A stretch of 64,000 bases of DNA from Nitrospirota bacterium. GTDB taxonomy: Bacteria; Nitrospirota; Thermodesulfovibrionia; Thermodesulfovibrionales; Dissulfurispiraceae. The number at the start of each line of letters is the position of its first letter. Positions within the stretch are counted from its first letter, which is position 1. The stretch lies in NCBI GenBank assembly GCA_021791055.1, contig JAJYXI010000053.1:1-64000 (forward strand), given 5' to 3'. The notes beneath the pieces are model-generated. The model was not told the origin of the DNA. It saw only the letters and a list, made by a program, of their open reading frames with translations, and did no database searches. Position numbers and translations under genes: made by a program. This document shows positions 13,090-63,540 of this stretch, in pieces.

Positions 13090-13847
13090 GGGACGGTTCT
13101 AATTTATTCCGCTCGCCTTTTTCGGCCGCCCTACCGTCCGTATCACGGCTGAAACTTTATATTTTGTCCCCACTTTTTTGATAAAGGCTTCATTCCCATA
13201 GACCGTCCTTCTGTCCATCTCTCCCTTCATTGCATCCTTGTCCCTGAGCATCCCCTTTACCAGTTCCCTGTATTTTTTGCGTCTCTCGCTTTCATCATCA
13301 GACAGTGTTCTATAAATTGGATGTTCGTCTATTATTAAATCGATCTTCCCATAGGCATATGCAGAGTAACTGCTCCATCTGTATTGCTTAGGATCATTAA
13401 CTATTTTTGCCCGAACAGGGTTCAGCTCCACATAGCTTCCGCAGGCAAGCAGATAGTCGTCTTTTGATATTATGATGCTCTTGTATCTGTCCTGCCAGAA
13501 ATGACCGATGTGCCCGTATTTGTTTTTATAATATTGCGCATAGGAGAGGTTTATCACTTTCATCATCTCGGCAAGACTTCCACCTTTTTCTGTGGGCTCA
13601 AGCACGAGATGCACATGGTTTGTCATTAATACATAGTGATAGAGCTTGAATTTGTATTTATTCTTGCATTTTGAAAGCAGTTCGATATACTTCCTGTAGT
13701 CATACTCATCTTTAAAAACATCCTGTCGATTATTTCCCCTCGTTAGGACATGATATACATACTCTCTCGGCGCTATCCTCGCTATCCTCGGCATAGTGCA
13801 ACAATATCAAAAGATAATCTTTTTTGTCAATTAATTAGAACCGTCCC
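13090..13847 (-). mobile_element. REP-type HUH transposase unit with 15-bp inverted ends
   Basis: GGGACGGTTCTAATT at 13090-13104 is repeated in perfect inverted form at 13833-13847, and the two copies bracket the transposase gene closely. This argues that they are the recognised ends or hairpins of the unit. REP-associated tyrosine transposases are known to act on short palindromic sequences next to their gene. No target duplication was seen. Confidence 0.65.
13099..13794 (-). CDS. REP-associated tyrosine (Y1/HUH) transposase
   Basis: A 231-residue Y1 transposase of the IS200-like superfamily, REP-associated branch. The N-terminus MPRIARI...YHVLTRGNN is characteristic. The HUH metal motif TNHVHLVLEP is at about residue 59, with a candidate nucleophilic Tyr in NLSYAQYYKNKYG (about 88-92). 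The C-terminal helical region is longer than in IS200/IS605 TnpA, typical of the RAYT group. It nicks single-stranded DNA at hairpins. It lies at the distal edge of the integron-like segment. Confidence 0.88.
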   Translation of the reverse strand: MPRIARIAPREYVYHVLTRGNNRQDVFKDEYDYRKYIELLSKCKNKYKFKLYHYVLMTNHVHLVLEPTEKGGSLAEMMKVINLSYAQYYKNKYGHIGHFWQDRYKSIIISKDDYLLACGSYVELNPVRAKIVNDPKQYRWSSYSAYAYGKIDLIIDEHPIYRTLSDDESERRKKYRELVKGMLRDKDAMKGEMDRRTVYGNEAFIKKVGTKYKVSAVIRTVGRPKKASGIN

Positions 13848-13882: not shown

Positions 13883-14872
13883 TCAGCGATCCGCCAAAGT
13901 AGCGCGGCAGTGCCTTGCCTCCCGGAAAATAACCGAAGGCACCAAGCGTATGTAAATCAACTCGCCGACCAGTTCCACAAGCGTTTGGGTCACAATTACG
14001 GCAGACGCCAGAATCCAAGCGTCCGGCAAAGCCAGAGCAAGCGGAAGCACCACCAACGAATTGCGCGTCCCCGCGCTGAAGATCAGCGCTCTTCCCGCTT
14101 GCGTATCCAGGCGAAACGCACACGCCGTCAGGCGGGCGAGAAACGGCATGATGGCCATGAAGGCAACATAGACCGGCACAGCTTGGCTGACTAGCGGGAG
14201 GGATTCTTCGATTCTGCCAATTTGAGATGCAACAACGAGAAACAGGGTAACCGCCATGAATGGCACCGGAAGCCACGCGGTTGCTTCAAGCCATCTTGCG
14301 CCGCTGCGGCGGCGCTTCGCCCAAAACTCGGTCACTAAGGCAAGCCCTAGAGGCAAAACGATGAGCACAAGAAAAGCCTCCAGAAATGGCCCGGCGCTCA
14401 TGACCTGTGCGGCCTGCCCGCCCATGAAAAGCCACAGATAGACGGGTAGCAGGAGCATCTGGGCGAGAAGCAACAAAGGTGTGGAGGCAAGAACTAGCCG
14501 TGCATTTCCACGGCCGAGGTGAGTAAAGACAATAACATAGTCAATGCAAGGGGTGAGCAGAACGAGATATACCCCGAGTAGCAGCGGCGGGTGTTGAGGC
14601 AGAAGGCGCGACAGCAACCAGACCAGGATGGGGACGATGAAAAAATTAACCGTCAGCAGTGCGGCGGTAAACCGCCGATTGGAAAATGCTTCGCGCAGAT
14701 GAAGAAACGGAATCTGGGCAAACATTCCGTAAAGCAACACCGCAAGCACTGGGGAGATCAGGAATTCCAGGCTCACGCCAAAAGTCGGGCGCCACAACCC
14801 AAGCCCCGCCCCGATAGCCAAGGCCACGGCGTATAGCCAGATTTGATTCTCTTCTAGTTGCTCTCTTGACAC
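13883..14872 (-). CDS. SBF/ACR3-superfamily transporter (arsenic resistance-type)
   Basis: A 329-residue protein with about ten hydrophobic helices, including LTPCIDYVIVFTHLGRGN and a second half with FSAGTRNSLVVLPLALALP, matching the bile acid:sodium symporter/arsenic resistance group. Transport of arsenite or another anion is inferred from family. The GTG at 14872 has AAGGAAG upstream and lies 17 bp after a putative attC core. The gene is clearly GC-richer than its neighbours, a sign of transfer, and I interpret it as an integron cassette gene. No attC follows its 3' end, so the cassette looks truncated. Confidence 0.8.
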   Translation of the reverse strand: MSREQLEENQIWLYAVALAIGAGLGLWRPTFGVSLEFLISPVLAVLLYGMFAQIPFLHLREAFSNRRFTAALLTVNFFIVPILVWLLSRLLPQHPPLLLGVYLVLLTPCIDYVIVFTHLGRGNARLVLASTPLLLLAQMLLLPVYLWLFMGGQAAQVMSAGPFLEAFLVLIVLPLGLALVTEFWAKRRRSGARWLEATAWLPVPFMAVTLFLVVASQIGRIEESLPLVSQAVPVYVAFMAIMPFLARLTACAFRLDTQAGRALIFSAGTRNSLVVLPLALALPDAWILASAVIVTQTLVELVGELIYIRLVPSVIFREARHCRATLADR

Positions 14873-14888: not shown

Positions 14889-14943
14889 GCATAACGCAGA
14901 GTTCACCGGCGCGCCGCTTTTGCGCGTCCGGTGGAACGACGTG
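14889..14943 (-). other. larger part of an integron attC site, split by the IS110 element
   Basis: Read on the minus strand, the site ends in the core GTTATGC (14895-14889). Inside are complementary L-box arms, GTTCACCGG on one side and CCGGTGGAAC on the other, differing by one unpaired base as attC arms do, around a GC-rich stem. The matching ACCTAAC box lies at 16592-16598, on the far side of the IS element. Together they would form an attC of about 60 bp. Confidence 0.7.
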
Positions 14944-14952
14944 ATACTTATT

Positions 14953-15021
14953 AAGGCCTCCTAAATCATAGCGCAAAGCGATATGATTAACAATCCCAAA
15001 AAACATTCACAAGGAGGCCTT
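14953..15021 (+). promoter_or_regulatory. hairpin sequestering the transposase ribosome binding site
   Basis: AAGGCCTCCT at 14953-14962 is perfectly complementary to AGGAGGCCTT at 15012-15021, and the latter contains the Shine-Dalgarno sequence 3 nt before the transposase ATG. A smaller inner pair (ATCATA / TATGAT) sits in the loop. A transcript entering from outside would hide the ribosome binding site, a known strategy by which elements limit transposase. The left arm is also part of the left end of the element. Confidence 0.6.
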
Positions 15022-15023
15022 AT

Positions 15024-16067
15024 ATGAGATTTTACACCAAACAGCACGAATTTTACTGCGGAATTGATTTGCACGCAAAGACCATGTATTTGTGCATTAT
15101 CAATCAGGAGGGCGATATATTACTTCATCGCAACATGAGAACCGATCCGGAAGTCTTTCTGAGAGCAATTGCTCCTTACCGGCAGGACATCGTTGTTGCC
15201 GTTGAGTGCATCTTCACATGGTACTGGATTGCCGACCTCTGCGATAGAGAGCATATCCCCTTTGTTTTGGGACACGCTCTTTATATGAAAGCCATCCATG
15301 GCGGCAAGGCAAAGAATGACAAGATAGATGCCCATAAAATAGCGGTTCTTCTGCGAGGCGGCATGATGCCAATGGCATATGTATATCCCCCGGAAATGCG
15401 TTCTACCAGGGACTTACTCAGAAGAAGAATGCATCTTACAAGAAAGAGGGCAGAGCTTTTAGCCCATGTCCAAAACACCAATCACCAGTATAATCTGCCG
15501 GACATAGGAAAAAGGATTGCCAAGAAAAGCAACAGGGTGGGAGTTGCAGAAAGGTTTCCTGATGAAAGCGTCAGAAAAAGTATCGAACTTGACCTCAATC
15601 TTCTAAACTACTATGATCAACTTCTCCTTCATCTGGAACATGAGTTATCCCTCATTGCCAAGACCCATGACGCGGACTCTTATTTCCGCCTTCGTTCAAT
15701 TCCTGGAATTGGAAGAATCCTCGGTCTGGTGATTCTCTATGAAATACATGACATTAATAGATTTGAAAGGGTTCAGGATTTTGTATCCTATTGTCGTCTG
15801 GTCAAATCAGCTAAGGAATCGGCAGGCAAGCGTATGGGCAGTTCCGGTAAAAAGATCGGCAATGTCCATTTGAAATGGGCATTTTCTGAAGCGGCAGTGC
15901 TTTTTCTCAGAAGAAACACTGATGCGAGAAAATACAGAGAGAAACTTGCAAAAAAACACGGAAAGGCAAAGTCTCTAACCATTCTGGCTCATAAGCTTGC
16001 CAGAACCGTTTACTATTTATTGAAACGCAAAGAGGTATTCGATATGAACACATTCTTTCAAAGATAA
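15024..16067 (+). CDS. IS110-family transposase (DEDD)
   Basis: A 347-residue transposase with the N-terminal RuvC-like DEDD domain: first Asp in CGIDLHAKTM (about 12), Glu in VAVECIFTWYW (about 59), and the paired Asp residues in KNDKIDAHKIA (about 97-100). A C-terminal helix-hairpin-helix segment IPGIGRILGLVILYE (about 229) is followed by the conserved SSGKKIGNVHLKWAF with the catalytic Ser. IS110 enzymes act with an element-encoded guide RNA. The frame is intact, so the element may be active. Confidence 0.92.
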   Translation: MRFYTKQHEFYCGIDLHAKTMYLCIINQEGDILLHRNMRTDPEVFLRAIAPYRQDIVVAVECIFTWYWIADLCDREHIPFVLGHALYMKAIHGGKAKNDKIDAHKIAVLLRGGMMPMAYVYPPEMRSTRDLLRRRMHLTRKRAELLAHVQNTNHQYNLPDIGKRIAKKSNRVGVAERFPDESVRKSIELDLNLLNYYDQLLLHLEHELSLIAKTHDADSYFRLRSIPGIGRILGLVILYEIHDINRFERVQDFVSYCRLVKSAKESAGKRMGSSGKKIGNVHLKWAFSEAAVLFLRRNTDARKYREKLAKKHGKAKSLTILAHKLARTVYYLLKRKEVFDMNTFFQR

Positions 16068-16576
16068 AAGACTCCGGGCGAGCCTGTTCGTCTAACTGGA
16101 GCCATAAGGGTAAATTCCGGTAAATGCTTGCAAACAATACGTATATGGCATTGACCATGAAAGATGAGCATTATGGAATGCTGTGCCCGGCGCCAATTGC
16201 TTTGATTAGGACGCCCGGAAACAAATATACACGATACACGGAAAAAGGTTGTTTTGCAGGGTCTGCCCCTTACCCGAGCCCGTAGCTAACTGGCAACAGC
16301 CTCTGTGCTGTCAGCCGCTTGTTTTGATTGGGACGGCATAAGGGTACAGATTCGTTTCTTGGCCGCAGGGATAAAAGGGCCATGCCTTCCCTGCTGTTGT
16401 CCCGAATGCTTTCGGGACTATCGAGCCACGATAAGTGTTTGGTGCAGACTTCTGTCTGATACCGTATGGAGAAACCAAGTCAGAGCTGCTATGCAATCTG
16501 AACGGTATCGTTAAAAAATTAAGGAACGATTTTTTCTTATCGTTTCCGTTTAGGAGCGCTTTTGCCCTTGACAACC
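16068..16576 (+). ncRNA. non-coding 3' region of IS110 element, candidate guide (bridge/seek) RNA
   Basis: About 510 bp without a convincing gene separates the transposase stop from the right end. IS1111-type elements are known to encode their target-specifying RNA downstream of the transposase. The stretch contains stem-forming segments such as TCCCGAATGCTTTCGGGA (about 16397) and an ACAGC/GCTGT stem near 16297. It also holds two similar segments, TTTGATTAGGACG (about 16200) and TTTGATTGGGACG (about 16322). RNA boundaries and guide loops were not resolved. Confidence 0.4.
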
Positions 16577-16589
16577 GGAGGCCTTATAA

Positions 16590-16598
16590 GTGTTAGGT
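16590..16598 (-). other. short distal half of the split attC site
   Basis: On the minus strand ACCTAAC (16598-16592) matches the inverse core box RYYYAAC. It contains the TAA stop of the membrane-protein gene, as is common where a cassette gene runs into its attC. Its partner arms lie at 14889-14943 beyond the IS element. Confidence 0.65.
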
Positions 16599-17060
16599 GT
16601 CATTTTCAAGTTCTTCTATCAGGTTATAGAACCGCCACTCATAGTAACTCGCTATAAATATAAGAGTAGAGGCAATAGTAAATATAACAACACTCCCAAA
16701 CATCGTGTAAATGCAGTAATCCGGAATCGGATTATATGACTTGAAGATCACTGCCAAAAGAATTATCGCGATTGAATACATGACATAGAGACCTTGCCAT
16801 AGTCTAAATCTTTTATTCTCATTAATACGTTGTGGAAGTAAAACTCTAAAATACTTTAACTGAATATTGTCAATAATTGCGATTAAGCCTTTATGTTTAT
16901 TCTCCCAATGCGCAGCGACCTTCTTCCGTATTTCATTTCTCCTCTTTTCAAGAGGTCTAAAGAATGAAAAATGCAGCGCAGTATATAAAGTTACATAGAG
17001 CGCTACGATTGTGCCCGGAATGTATAAGAGAAAGTTAAATAAAAAATCAGTGTTGTTCAC
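16593..17060 (-). CDS. membrane protein of unknown function (integron cassette gene)
   Basis: A 155-residue protein with three probable membrane segments: FNFLLYIPGTIVALYVTLYTA at the N-terminus, then GLYVMYSIAIILLAVIF and MFGSVVIFTIASTLIFIASY. Between the first and second lies a basic region, EKRRNEIRKKVAAHWENK. I recognise no family. It starts 16 bp after the DUF397 gene with no recombination site between, so both belong to one cassette. Its stop codon falls inside the attC inverse core box. Confidence 0.6.
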   Translation of the reverse strand: MNNTDFLFNFLLYIPGTIVALYVTLYTALHFSFFRPLEKRRNEIRKKVAAHWENKHKGLIAIIDNIQLKYFRVLLPQRINENKRFRLWQGLYVMYSIAIILLAVIFKSYNPIPDYCIYTMFGSVVIFTIASTLIFIASYYEWRFYNLIEELENDT

Positions 17061-17313: not shown

Positions 17314-17338
17314 CTTACTTTTCTCCTTTCTATCTCAC

Positions 17339-17484
17339 CTAACGGATGCAGCTGAACTGCTGCCCGCAGGGCAGTCTGTTCGAGCGGATTGTTCCAGAGC
17401 GCGAGTCAGCGCGCGAGGGAACGATTTTAATCCGCGAGGCAGTTCAGCTGCATCCGTTCCCGAGACGCGCAGCGTCTCGGGAAC
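17339..17484 (-). repeat. 146-bp repeat, copy 1 (gene-less integron cassette candidate)
   Basis: Identical over 146 bp to 18838-18983. A 20-bp perfect inverted repeat (17341-17360 with 17439-17458) forms the main arms, and a 29-bp palindrome starting GTTCCCGAGACGC (17456-17484) follows. On the minus strand the unit runs from GTTCCCG to CCGTTAGGT. The identity with copy 2 stops right after GTTAG, as expected if recombination occurred at the GTT cores. It contains no gene. Confidence 0.75.
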
Positions 17485-17610
17485 GTAGAAGTCACTGACG
17501 AGTGCCATGTAAGACTTCAACCAGCTTAAAACCAGTTTGCACGTCACAAATCAAACACATGCTCAAAAAGTGCCATGTGGCACTCGTTCATGTGCACTGA
17601 TTGGTTAGCC
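17478..17610 (-). other. probable attC site of the toxin-antitoxin cassette
   Basis: On the minus strand an inverse box GGCTAAC (17610-17604) follows the toxin gene and a core-like GTTCCCG (17484-17478) ends the site at the junction with the 146-bp repeat. A 10-bp perfect arm pair, ACGAGTGCCA (17498-17507) with TGGCACTCGT (17578-17587), lies inside. The 133-bp length resembles the long attC sites of chromosomal integrons. The core is degenerate, so the call is moderate. Confidence 0.5.
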
Positions 17611-17646: not shown

Positions 17647-17907
17647 TTACTTGTAAATATCCCCTCTTGGCCCTATCGCTTCAATAAGAATTGTTTTGTC
17701 TTCTACGTTAACTCTGTAAACGATTCTCAAATTACCTACTGCATATCTGTATTTCCCCTCATGTGTTCCTCTAAGTCTTTTAATATGTGGCCCCTCAAGT
17801 GGATTGTTACTCATTACTTCAATGGCTTTATTTATCCTTTTTGCTGTCTTATCATCAAGGCTTTCATAATACTTGACTGCCTTTTTGTGAGGGGAAACTT
17901 TATACAT
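17647..17907 (-). CDS. RelE/ParE-superfamily toxin
   Basis: An 86-residue protein of the RelE/ParE fold: KKAVKYYESLDDKTAKRINKAIEVM at the N-terminus, then LRGTHEGKYRYAVGNLRIVYRVN with the basic residues typical of RelE-type mRNA interferases, and a terminal IEAIGPRGDIYK. RelE toxins cleave ribosome-bound mRNA; ParE relatives poison gyrase, and sequence alone favours RelE (YR.GN.RI.Y). It overlaps the upstream antitoxin gene by 8 bp. Such pairs are frequent in chromosomal integrons, where they stabilise the array. Confidence 0.85.
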   Translation of the reverse strand: MYKVSPHKKAVKYYESLDDKTAKRINKAIEVMSNNPLEGPHIKRLRGTHEGKYRYAVGNLRIVYRVNVEDKTILIEAIGPRGDIYK

Positions 17908-18837: not shown

Positions 18838-18983
18838 CTAACGGATGCAGCTGAACTGCTGCCCGCAGGGCAGTCTGTTCGAGCGGATTGTTCCAGAGCG
18901 CGAGTCAGCGCGCGAGGGAACGATTTTAATCCGCGAGGCAGTTCAGCTGCATCCGTTCCCGAGACGCGCAGCGTCTCGGGAAC
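18838..18983 (-). repeat. 146-bp repeat, copy 2 (cassette candidate next to the integrase)
   Basis: Identical to 17339-17484, offset by 1499 bp. On the minus strand it begins GTTCCCG beside the presumed attI region and ends CCGTTAGCC at the CFI-box gene. Bases beyond GTTAG differ from copy 1, which sets the unit boundaries at the core sites. Confidence 0.75.
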
Positions 18984-19217
18984 ATTCTCTTTTAAGTTTA
19001 TTCAATATTATGATAAATTATAGAAATCAAGAGCGGGATAGTCAAGGTAAAATCATAAAATCGTGGGAAAGTGGAGGTTAAATGCAATATAATAATGTCA
19101 TATCTCTTATTATGTTGCTGAAATGTAGTATTGTATATTAGTTATGTTAGAGTCATTTAAAAACTTTTTGTCATCAAAAAACAAGATAAACGACAAATAT
19201 CTTCCGTTTTATTTAAG
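18984..19217. other. presumed attI/promoter region of the integron
   Basis: A 234-bp AT-rich stretch between the first cassette-like repeat and the integrase gene. By position it should hold attI, the cassette promoter and the integrase promoter. The junction base string GAATGTTCCCG (minus strand) would be the attI crossover. I could not define integrase binding boxes by eye. Confidence 0.4.
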
Positions 19218-19886
19218 ATGGTAACGGAAGGTTTGCGTTTCCTTGATATTCCATTAACTCAATCTATTACAAATGACCAAAAATCTCAATTTCTTAAATA
19301 CTTATCCAAAACCCATGAAGACTGGCAGGTAAAGCAGGCTGATAACGCGCTTAGACTTTACAGCTATTTTCTCTCATCGCAACATTCTGATAAGGCAGGC
19401 GGCATTTCTGAAACATTGATTAATGACTGGAAGGTGGTTGAAGAAAAAACAGTAGAAGCTATCAGACTCCGTCATAGGTCTTACAGCACGGAAAAAACAT
19501 ACATTGCATGGCTTAGGCAGTTTCAGGATTTCGTCAAGAGCAAAGAGTTGAAAGAACTTAATGGAAAAGACCTGCAGGACTTTTTAAGCTATCTCGCGGT
19601 TGAAAGGAAGGTTTCATCATCAACTCAGAATCAGGCGTTGAATGCTATTGTTTTTGTCTATCGCCATGTCCTTGAAAAGGATATAGAAGATCAGATTAAT
19701 TCTGTCAGGGCACGGCAGAAGCGCCGCCTTCCTGTAGTATTGACTGCAACGCATCTTCTTGAAAGCGGCTATGACATCAGGACAATTCAGGAACTGCTTG
19801 GACACCGCAACCTTCAGACGACTATGATTTATACCCATGTGGCTACAAAAAATATACTCGGTGTGCGGAGTCCGCTGGATAAATGA
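19218..19886 (+). pseudogene. intI: integron integrase with internal deletion
   Basis: Tyrosine recombinase of the IntI type, opposite in orientation to the cassettes as in integrons. The middle and end match IntI strongly: [34 protein letters not shown], then [39 protein letters not shown]. Between PVVLT and ATHLL about 150 residues are missing in frame, including the catalytic Arg, Lys, the HxxR box and the IntI-specific insertion. The distal His and nucleophilic Tyr remain. It should be inactive. An N-terminal extension of about 80 residues is present, as in some environmental integrases. Its stop overlaps the next gene's start. Confidence 0.85.
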
Positions 19887-60137: not shown

Positions 60138-60917
<780 letters not shown>

Positions 60918-63208: not shown

Positions 63209-63540
63209 GTCTGAAAGATACTTCCAATAAAACAAGGATTGAAACACAATGGCAGGAAGAATGACGGTGGTGCATTGTATGTCTGAAAGATACTTCCAAT
63301 AAAACAAGGATTGAAACACGAGAAGGGCAATCTCATAATGGGCAATGTGATTGCTGTCTGAAAGATACTTCCAATAAAACAAGGATTGAAACAGAAATCG
63401 AAAGGGGGAAACCATGAAAACTGAGATAGAGTCTGAAAGATACTTCCAATAAAACAAGGATTGAAACGGAACTGACATCGAGACAACTTGTAAGCGCATC
63501 GCTGTCTGAAAGATACTTCCAATAAAACAAGGATTGAAAC
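63209..63540 (+). CRISPR. CRISPR array 2, 5 repeats
   Basis: Five copies of the 37-nt repeat of array 1, starting at 63209, 63281, 63356, 63431 and 63504; spacers 35-38 bp. Same orientation as array 1. It has no cas4-type AT-rich leader directly upstream, but the interrupted gene. Confidence 0.97.

What the first reader, a model, noticed from the sequence alone, without database searches (positions are those of the whole stretch)
14889..16598. IS110-family element splitting an attC site
Seen: two attC parts (14889-14943 with complementary arms and core GTTATGC; 16592-16598 with ACCTAAC) lie on both sides of an IS110 transposase element with subterminal inverted repeats GGAGGCCTTA. The stop of the cassette gene falls inside the box. 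Known: one IS1111 subgroup inserts specifically into attC sites. Inference: a member of this group that used the cassette site as target, in a genome group where I am not aware of it.
Basis: partly seen in the sequence, partly recalled or inferred. Interest (0 to 1): 0.75.

Follow-up and report, generated by a model that had tools for sequence, protein, structure and literature searches.

The report
RNA-guided transposon targeting integron attC sites
A small jumping gene sits exactly inside a gene-cassette recombination site (attC) of a Nitrospirota integron, and comparison with relatives from many phyla shows that its lineage, only distantly related to the known attC-seeking elements, homes on such sites and very probably finds them with its own guide RNA.

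Summary
A 1,649-bp IS110-superfamily element (14943-16591) splits a 61-nt attC exactly at the edge of its R'' box (GACGT|GTTAGGT). The rejoined flanks align without a gap to an intact attC in a genome of the same family and fold as an attC. The host is Nitrospirota. The filing is only partly right. The ends are IS1111-like (12-bp subterminal repeats, 7-bp and 3-bp extensions, downstream non-coding region), but the transposase is not in the known IS1111-attC group: 20% identity to ISPa21, a separate clade with full support, and a joint clade with ISPa21 is rejected (AU p = 0.002). It also inserts 7-8 bp away from where ISPa21-type elements insert. About 80 relatives from roughly a dozen phyla share the ends; nearly all readable right junctions are followed by GTT, mostly attC boxes. 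A structured ~500-nt RNA downstream of the transposase has a target loop whose two guides track each copy's own attC flanks, and a donor guide that tracks each copy's own right end (0 of 20,000 permutations each). Best reading: a second, probably independent lineage of bridge/seekRNA-guided elements that reads the degenerate attC box, partly through G-U wobble.

The parts
14889..14942 (-). attC body: R' box GTTATGC (14889-14895, read on the - strand), spacers, L'/L'' helix and loop; cut from its R'' box
16592..16598 (-). attC R'' box ACCTAAC (+ strand GTTAGGT); holds the TAA stop of the cassette ORF
14943..16591 (+). the insertion sequence, 1649 bp, no target duplication apparent (shared TG at both junctions)
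   Evidence: ends placed by comparison with about 45 relatives and a natural intact attC
14943..14949 (+). 7-bp left extension GATACTT; GATACT is a likely -10 in the circle junction
   Evidence: conserved in relatives; promoter role inferred
14950..14961 (+). left subterminal inverted repeat ATTAAGGCCTCC
15013..15023 (+). internal copy of the repeat (GGAGGCCTTAT) at the ribosome-binding site of the transposase, complementary to the left repeat
   Evidence: sequence; regulatory role inferred
15024..16067 (+). transposase, 347 aa; D15, E61, D99, D102 and S266 invariant in the group
16064..16226 (+). RNA domain D1 (target loop)
16090..16096 (+). D1 5' guide GUCUAAC, complementary to the target right half GTTAGGT with G-U allowed
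16197..16204 (+). D1 3' guide UUGCUUUG, in the sense of the target left half (weak match in this copy)
16258..16486 (+). RNA domain D2 (likely donor loop)
16429..16437 (+). D2 donor guide CGAUAAGUG, in the sense of the right end ATAAGTG
16568..16573 (+). TTGACA, likely -35 of the circle-junction promoter (18 nt before GATACT once the ends are joined)
   Evidence: conserved in relatives; role inferred
16577..16588 (+). right subterminal inverted repeat GGAGGCCTTATA
16589..16591 (+). 3-bp right extension AGT
16593..17060 (-). 155-aa cassette ORF upstream of the split attC, no known family
13883..14872 (-). ACR3/bile-acid-symporter-like gene beyond the attC

Best explanation
The element belongs to a second attC-targeting lineage of RNA-guided IS110-superfamily insertion sequences, distinct from the known IS1111-attC group. 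SHOWN: it splits an attC at T|GTTRRRY (the R'' end) and most relatives do the same in the same orientation; the transposase forms its own clade with the DEDD and serine residues conserved. SHOWN by covariation: the non-coding region of about 500 nt downstream of the transposase is a structured RNA; loop D1 carries a 5' guide complementary to the right half of the target (NNNNAAC against GTTNNNN) and a 3' guide in the sense of the left half, and D2 carries a guide in the sense of the element's own right end. INFERRED: the transposase with this bridge/seekRNA excises a circle whose joined ends form a promoter (TTGACA-18-GATACT), then pairs target and donor through the shared TG core and exchanges strands, giving TT|GATACT and AAGT|GTTRRRY without target duplication. 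INFERRED: one guide serves many attC sites because G and U in the guide tolerate Y and R by wobble, and the T before the box (common at R'', rare at R') sets the orientation. INFERRED: loss of the R'' box leaves this attC inactive for the integrase, freezing the cassette unless the element leaves.
For: Ends and insertion point shared by about 45 relatives, with GTT after the right end in nearly all; 20 of 34 rejoined sites pass the attC fold test at 5 or fewer of 100 shuffles; natural intact attC. RNA: D1 helices with 105 double-sided changes against 30 shuffled and at most 22 slid; the D1 model finds nearly all group members kept out of its training and no control IS. Guides: right 106 matches against 79.5 permuted, left 106 against 67.7, donor 258 against 233.4, each 0 of 20,000; without Treponema and Geobacter 71 against 60.3 (43 of 20,000) and 77 against 51.4 (0 of 20,000); donor without Treponema 209 against 195.9 (0 of 20,000). 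T before the box in 18 of 20 at the insertion end and 3 of 20 at the other end. Separate clade, joint clade rejected p = 0.0018. Guide-RNA mechanism established for IS110/IS1111 relatives (PMC11187229, PMC11208160).
Against: The left guide of this copy matches its own flank poorly. The permutation tests do not correct for shared ancestry, except by leaving out two clades. No guide complementary to the left donor half was found. A few relatives are not in attC (L027, L037) and one of six further copies is not followed by GTT. Part of the joins fail the fold test. No experiment exists.
Confidence: 0.82

Rival explanations
1. It is simply a distant member of the known IS1111-attC group (ISPa21, ISKpn4, ISPst6 type) that has reached Nitrospirota; attC targeting arose once.
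For: Same superfamily, subterminal repeats, downstream RNA, same end of attC and same orientation.
Against: 20% identity; joint clade rejected; different insertion point by 7-8 bp, different repeats, D1 RNA model silent on L094-L096. Long branches and few outgroups weaken the tree.
Confidence: 0.12
2. The element recognises the folded attC hairpin (structure) rather than a linear sequence; the RNA guides matter little.
For: The target is a structured site in most relatives and only one of its ends is used.
Against: Guide and flank covary on both sides of the insertion point, and the T before the box gives a simple linear explanation of polarity. Insertions outside attC exist (L027, L037).
Confidence: 0.08
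3. A chance or relaxed insertion at any GTT sequence next to or within an integron, with no specificity for attC.
For: Rare relatives sit outside attC (L027, L037).
Against: Same base-exact point in nearly all readable copies, with attC folds in 20 of 34.
Confidence: 0.02

Closest known systems
IS1111-attC group (ISPa21, ISUnCu1, ISPpu25-like as sampled here; ISKpn4, ISPst6, ISPa25 in PMC11187229)
   Same: Targets the R'' end of attC, transposase antiparallel to the cassette gene, subterminal repeats, non-coding region downstream of the transposase with target matches
   Different: Transposase 20% identical and in another clade; insertion exactly at T|GTTRRRY instead of 7-8 bp further inside; other repeats (ATTAAGGCCTCC against TGGACTCTCCCC); non-coding region about twice as long with an unrelated RNA
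IS1111 family and its seekRNA (ISEc11, ISPa11, ISKpn4; PMC11187229)
   Same: Downstream RNA; complement of the top strand precedes the bottom-strand match; 7-nt and 3-nt end extensions; probable junction promoter
   Different: Transposase lacks the GL-P----S(T)G pattern (here RLVKSAKESAG); conserved RNA of about 500 nt in two domains, against seekRNAs of 70-100 nt and a long form of about 150 nt
IS621 and bridge RNA (IS110 group; PMC11208160, PMC11208158)
   Same: DEDD recombinase with catalytic serine; separate target and donor guides in one RNA; IS621 is the nearest solved structure by sequence (8wt6, E 4.6e-9)
   Different: RNA on the other side of the gene, long subterminal repeats, other core and target
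attC sites of integron cassettes
   Same: The rejoined target has R''/R', spacers, L''/L' and a loop
   Different: Interrupted, so the R'' box is now 1.65 kb away

Membership tests
IS110 superfamily (DEDD transposases) | DEDD_Tnp_IS110 and Transposase_20 domains, DEDD residues and catalytic serine | tested here: met
IS1111 family | subterminal inverted repeats of 11-13 bp with 7-bp and 3-bp extensions | tested here: met
   left ATTAAGGCCTCC, right complement TATAAGGCCTCC, 10 of 12 identical
IS1111 family | longer non-coding region downstream of the transposase | tested here: met
IS1111 family | transposase related over its full length to IS1111-family transposases, with GL-P----S(T)G | tested here: not met
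   only the C-terminal part matches IS4321 (E 9e-8); motif is RLVKSAKESAG
IS1111-attC group | inserted in attC at one end in one orientation | tested here: met
IS1111-attC group | transposase clusters with ISPa21, ISUnCu1, ISPpu25 | tested here: not met
IS1111-attC group | same insertion position within attC | tested here: not met
bridge RNA / seekRNA guided elements | structured RNA encoded by the element | tested here: met
bridge RNA / seekRNA guided elements | guides that match both strands of the target and follow it between copies | tested here: met
   computational only
bridge RNA / seekRNA guided elements | donor guides for both element ends | tested here: inconclusive
   right-end guide covaries; no left-end guide found
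bridge RNA / seekRNA guided elements | RNA bound by the transposase and required for transposition, circular intermediate | not testable with these tools
   needs experiment
attC site | R''/R' boxes, L''/L' helix with extrahelical base, spacers, loop | tested here: met
   (1 of 100 shuffles), natural homologue; box GCATAAC departs from RYYYAAC at one position

The most novel reading that the evidence does not exclude
attC targeting by RNA-guided insertion sequences arose at least twice; this second lineage, spread over about a dozen phyla, carries a two-domain bridge RNA of about 500 nt whose target guide is a copy of the attC box and reads the degenerate box through G-U wobble, so that a programmable system has been tuned to a whole class of related sites.
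Probability: 0.6. Interest if true: 0.72.

Novelty: new variant of a known kind. Interest (0 to 1): 0.62.

Why it matters
It indicates that integron cassette sites have been chosen as a target more than once by RNA-guided recombinases, and gives a natural set of about 40 guide-target pairs from which the pairing rules of a downstream, two-domain bridge RNA can be read and tested. Such elements can freeze or reshape cassette arrays in environmental chromosomal integrons, where the papers searched do not mention them.

Tried and rejected
Rfam at gathering thresholds gives only CRISPR repeats. ISPa21 sources were first sought by accession and missed, then found by blasting a published ISUnCu1 primer (PMC4129628) padded with N. 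Undibacterium and Paraburkholderia hits are broken genes and no use as queries. A search for other copies of the split attC in the same genome found none, and same-genus genomes lack this cassette region, so no strict orthologous empty site was found; the empty-site evidence is a homologous attC. The idea that the CTAAC motif of D2 is a second target guide was not supported (2759 of 20,000). A Treponema-centred survey failed because the tool needs a G handle. Two scripts on the RNA-found loci failed through orientation and pattern errors; the corrected one is. The original IS1111-attC paper is not held.

Full report
WHAT IS THERE. The element runs from 14943 to 16591. Left of it is the body of an attC (14889-14942), right of it the R'' box GTTAGGT (16592-16598, ACCTAAC on the minus strand). 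Read on the minus strand the order is: a 155-aa cassette ORF ending in the TAA of ACCTAAC, then the element with its transposase antiparallel, then the rest of the attC ending in GTTATGC, then an ACR3/SBF-like transporter gene. Rejoining gives GCATAACGCAGAGTTCACCGGCGCGCCGCTTTTGCGCGTCCGGTGGAACGACGT|GTTAGGT, 61 nt. It folds as an attC, with 1 of 100 shuffles as good. A genome of the same family holds an intact attC that aligns across the join with 80% identity and no gap.

HOST. The window lies in a 2.55-Mb genome. Relatives placed in its order, class and phylum carry loci 100% identical to loci from records named Nitrospirae or Nitrospiraceae, so the host is Nitrospirota. The neighbouring integron integrase (19218-19886) has lost its middle. 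An intact one, with an attC-like site near it, lies on another contig.

THE RELATIVES. One scan gave 79 loci with mostly 40-84% protein identity, from records named Nitrospirae, Deltaproteobacteria, Geobacteraceae, Planctomycetota, Gemmatimonadetes, Acidobacteriota, Krumholzibacteriia, Aegiribacteria, Calditrichia, Chloroflexi, Paludibacter, Balneolales, Treponema and Proteobacteria. Many are metagenome bins, so single host assignments can be wrong. Their ends fall at the same place: TT|GATACTYATTRAGGCCYCC on the left, GGRGGCCTTATAAGT|GTTRRRY on the right. Of 34 joins that could be scored, 20 pass the attC fold test at 5 or fewer of 100 shuffles. A copy on an Alteromonas plasmid also ends on GTTAGGTG. 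In the phylum 11 of 396 sampled genomes carry the transposase, and in the class 16 of 230 carry the RNA, usually once each. Of six further independent copies found by the RNA model with a readable right end, five are followed by GTT.

NOT THE KNOWN GROUP. Real IS1111-attC elements were taken from class 1 integrons (L094 ISPa21, L095 ISUnCu1, L096 ISPpu25-like). They share the end of attC and the orientation, but insert 7-8 bp further in (GGCTTGAA|YGAATTGTTAGRC), have other repeats, and a transposase 20% identical to this one. ISPa21 itself matches the IS1111-family protein IS4321 at 30% over its length. The tree gives this group one branch at 100 and rejects a clade of both attC groups (AU p = 0.0018). 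Long branches and few outgroups are a caveat, so independent origin is probable, not proven.

THE RNA. The roughly 510 nt between the transposase stop and the right repeat fold into two domains. D1 (16064-16226) has a closing helix and a hairpin with 105 double-sided changes, against 30 in shuffles and at most 22 in slid controls. A covariance model of D1 finds nearly all members left out of its training and none of the control IS. D1 holds two candidate guides. The 5' one (NNNNAAC, usually GYCUAAC or GCAUAAC, that is an attC box itself) is complementary to the right half of the target: GUCCAAC where the target is GTTGGAC (L032), GUUCAAC where it is GTTGAAT (L041). The 3' one is in the sense of the left half: AACCTTTG with flank AACCTTT|G (L057). 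Own pairs match better than permuted pairs: 106 against 79.5 (42 loci) and 106 against 67.7 (30 loci), each 0 of 20,000; the signal stays without the Treponema and Geobacter clades. A guide in D2 (..AUAAGUG) follows each copy's own right end, including the Treponema form TATATGTG, 0 of 20,000. For this copy the right guide pairs over all seven bases with G-U allowed, the left guide poorly. Shared ancestry is not fully corrected in these tests.

MECHANISM. From these facts and the published bridge RNA and seekRNA work (PMC11208160, PMC11187229) the likely cycle is: circle formation, which joins TTGACA (16568-16573) and GATACT (14943-14948) at 18 nt and so makes a promoter; transcription of transposase and RNA; pairing of D1 with the target and of D2 with the donor; exchange at the shared TG. 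G opposite Y and U opposite R in the guide would let one RNA read many attC boxes. A T before the box, present at the insertion end in 18 of 20 sites and at the other attC end in 3 of 20, would explain why only one end is used. These steps are inferred, not shown. The split attC has lost its R'' box from the fold and is expected to be inactive for the integrase.

NOVELTY. attC-targeting IS and guide-RNA IS are both known. New, as far as searches of the held library show, are the separate lineage, its spread, the different insertion point, the long two-domain RNA and the guide-attC covariation. The original IS1111-attC papers (Tetu and Holmes 2008; Post and Hall 2009) were not held and ISfinder could not be searched, so an earlier mention of this lineage cannot be excluded.

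Noticed in passing
window 19218-19886: Integron integrase gene with its middle missing (TIGR02249 matched at 6-104 and again at the C-terminus); an intact integrase lies at G000:C64:19392-20342.
   Followed up: partly
window 17337-17490 and 18838-18990; L123 (G000:C29): Two nearly identical palindromic repeats of about 150 bp, likely long attC sites, with two more copies (99-100% identical) on contig C29 next to a second copy of the sequence upstream of intI.
   Followed up: partly
L021 and L033, upstream of tnp: Two relatives lack the usual left end; both have a similar unrelated stretch before the gene (AAAAAGAAGGAGGTGATATATA...), as if the left end had been replaced.
   Followed up: no
L118 (G120:C60:42650-42707 and upstream): A similar attC abuts what looks like a left-end remnant of a related element (AAGGAGGCCTTAATTAGTA|ACATGG).
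   Followed up: no
L037: A relative outside attC, with the same flanking sequence repeated on both sides of the element.
   Followed up: no
window 15013-15023: A third copy of the terminal repeat overlaps the ribosome-binding site and could hide it by pairing with the left repeat in read-through transcripts.
   Followed up: no
window 60138-60917 and 63209-63540: Two CRISPR arrays with the CRISPR-DR7 repeat.
   Followed up: no
window 17647-17907: ParE/RelE-family toxin gene as a probable cassette in the array.
   Followed up: no
window 13099-13794: IS200-like Y1 transposase close to the end of the array.
   Followed up: no
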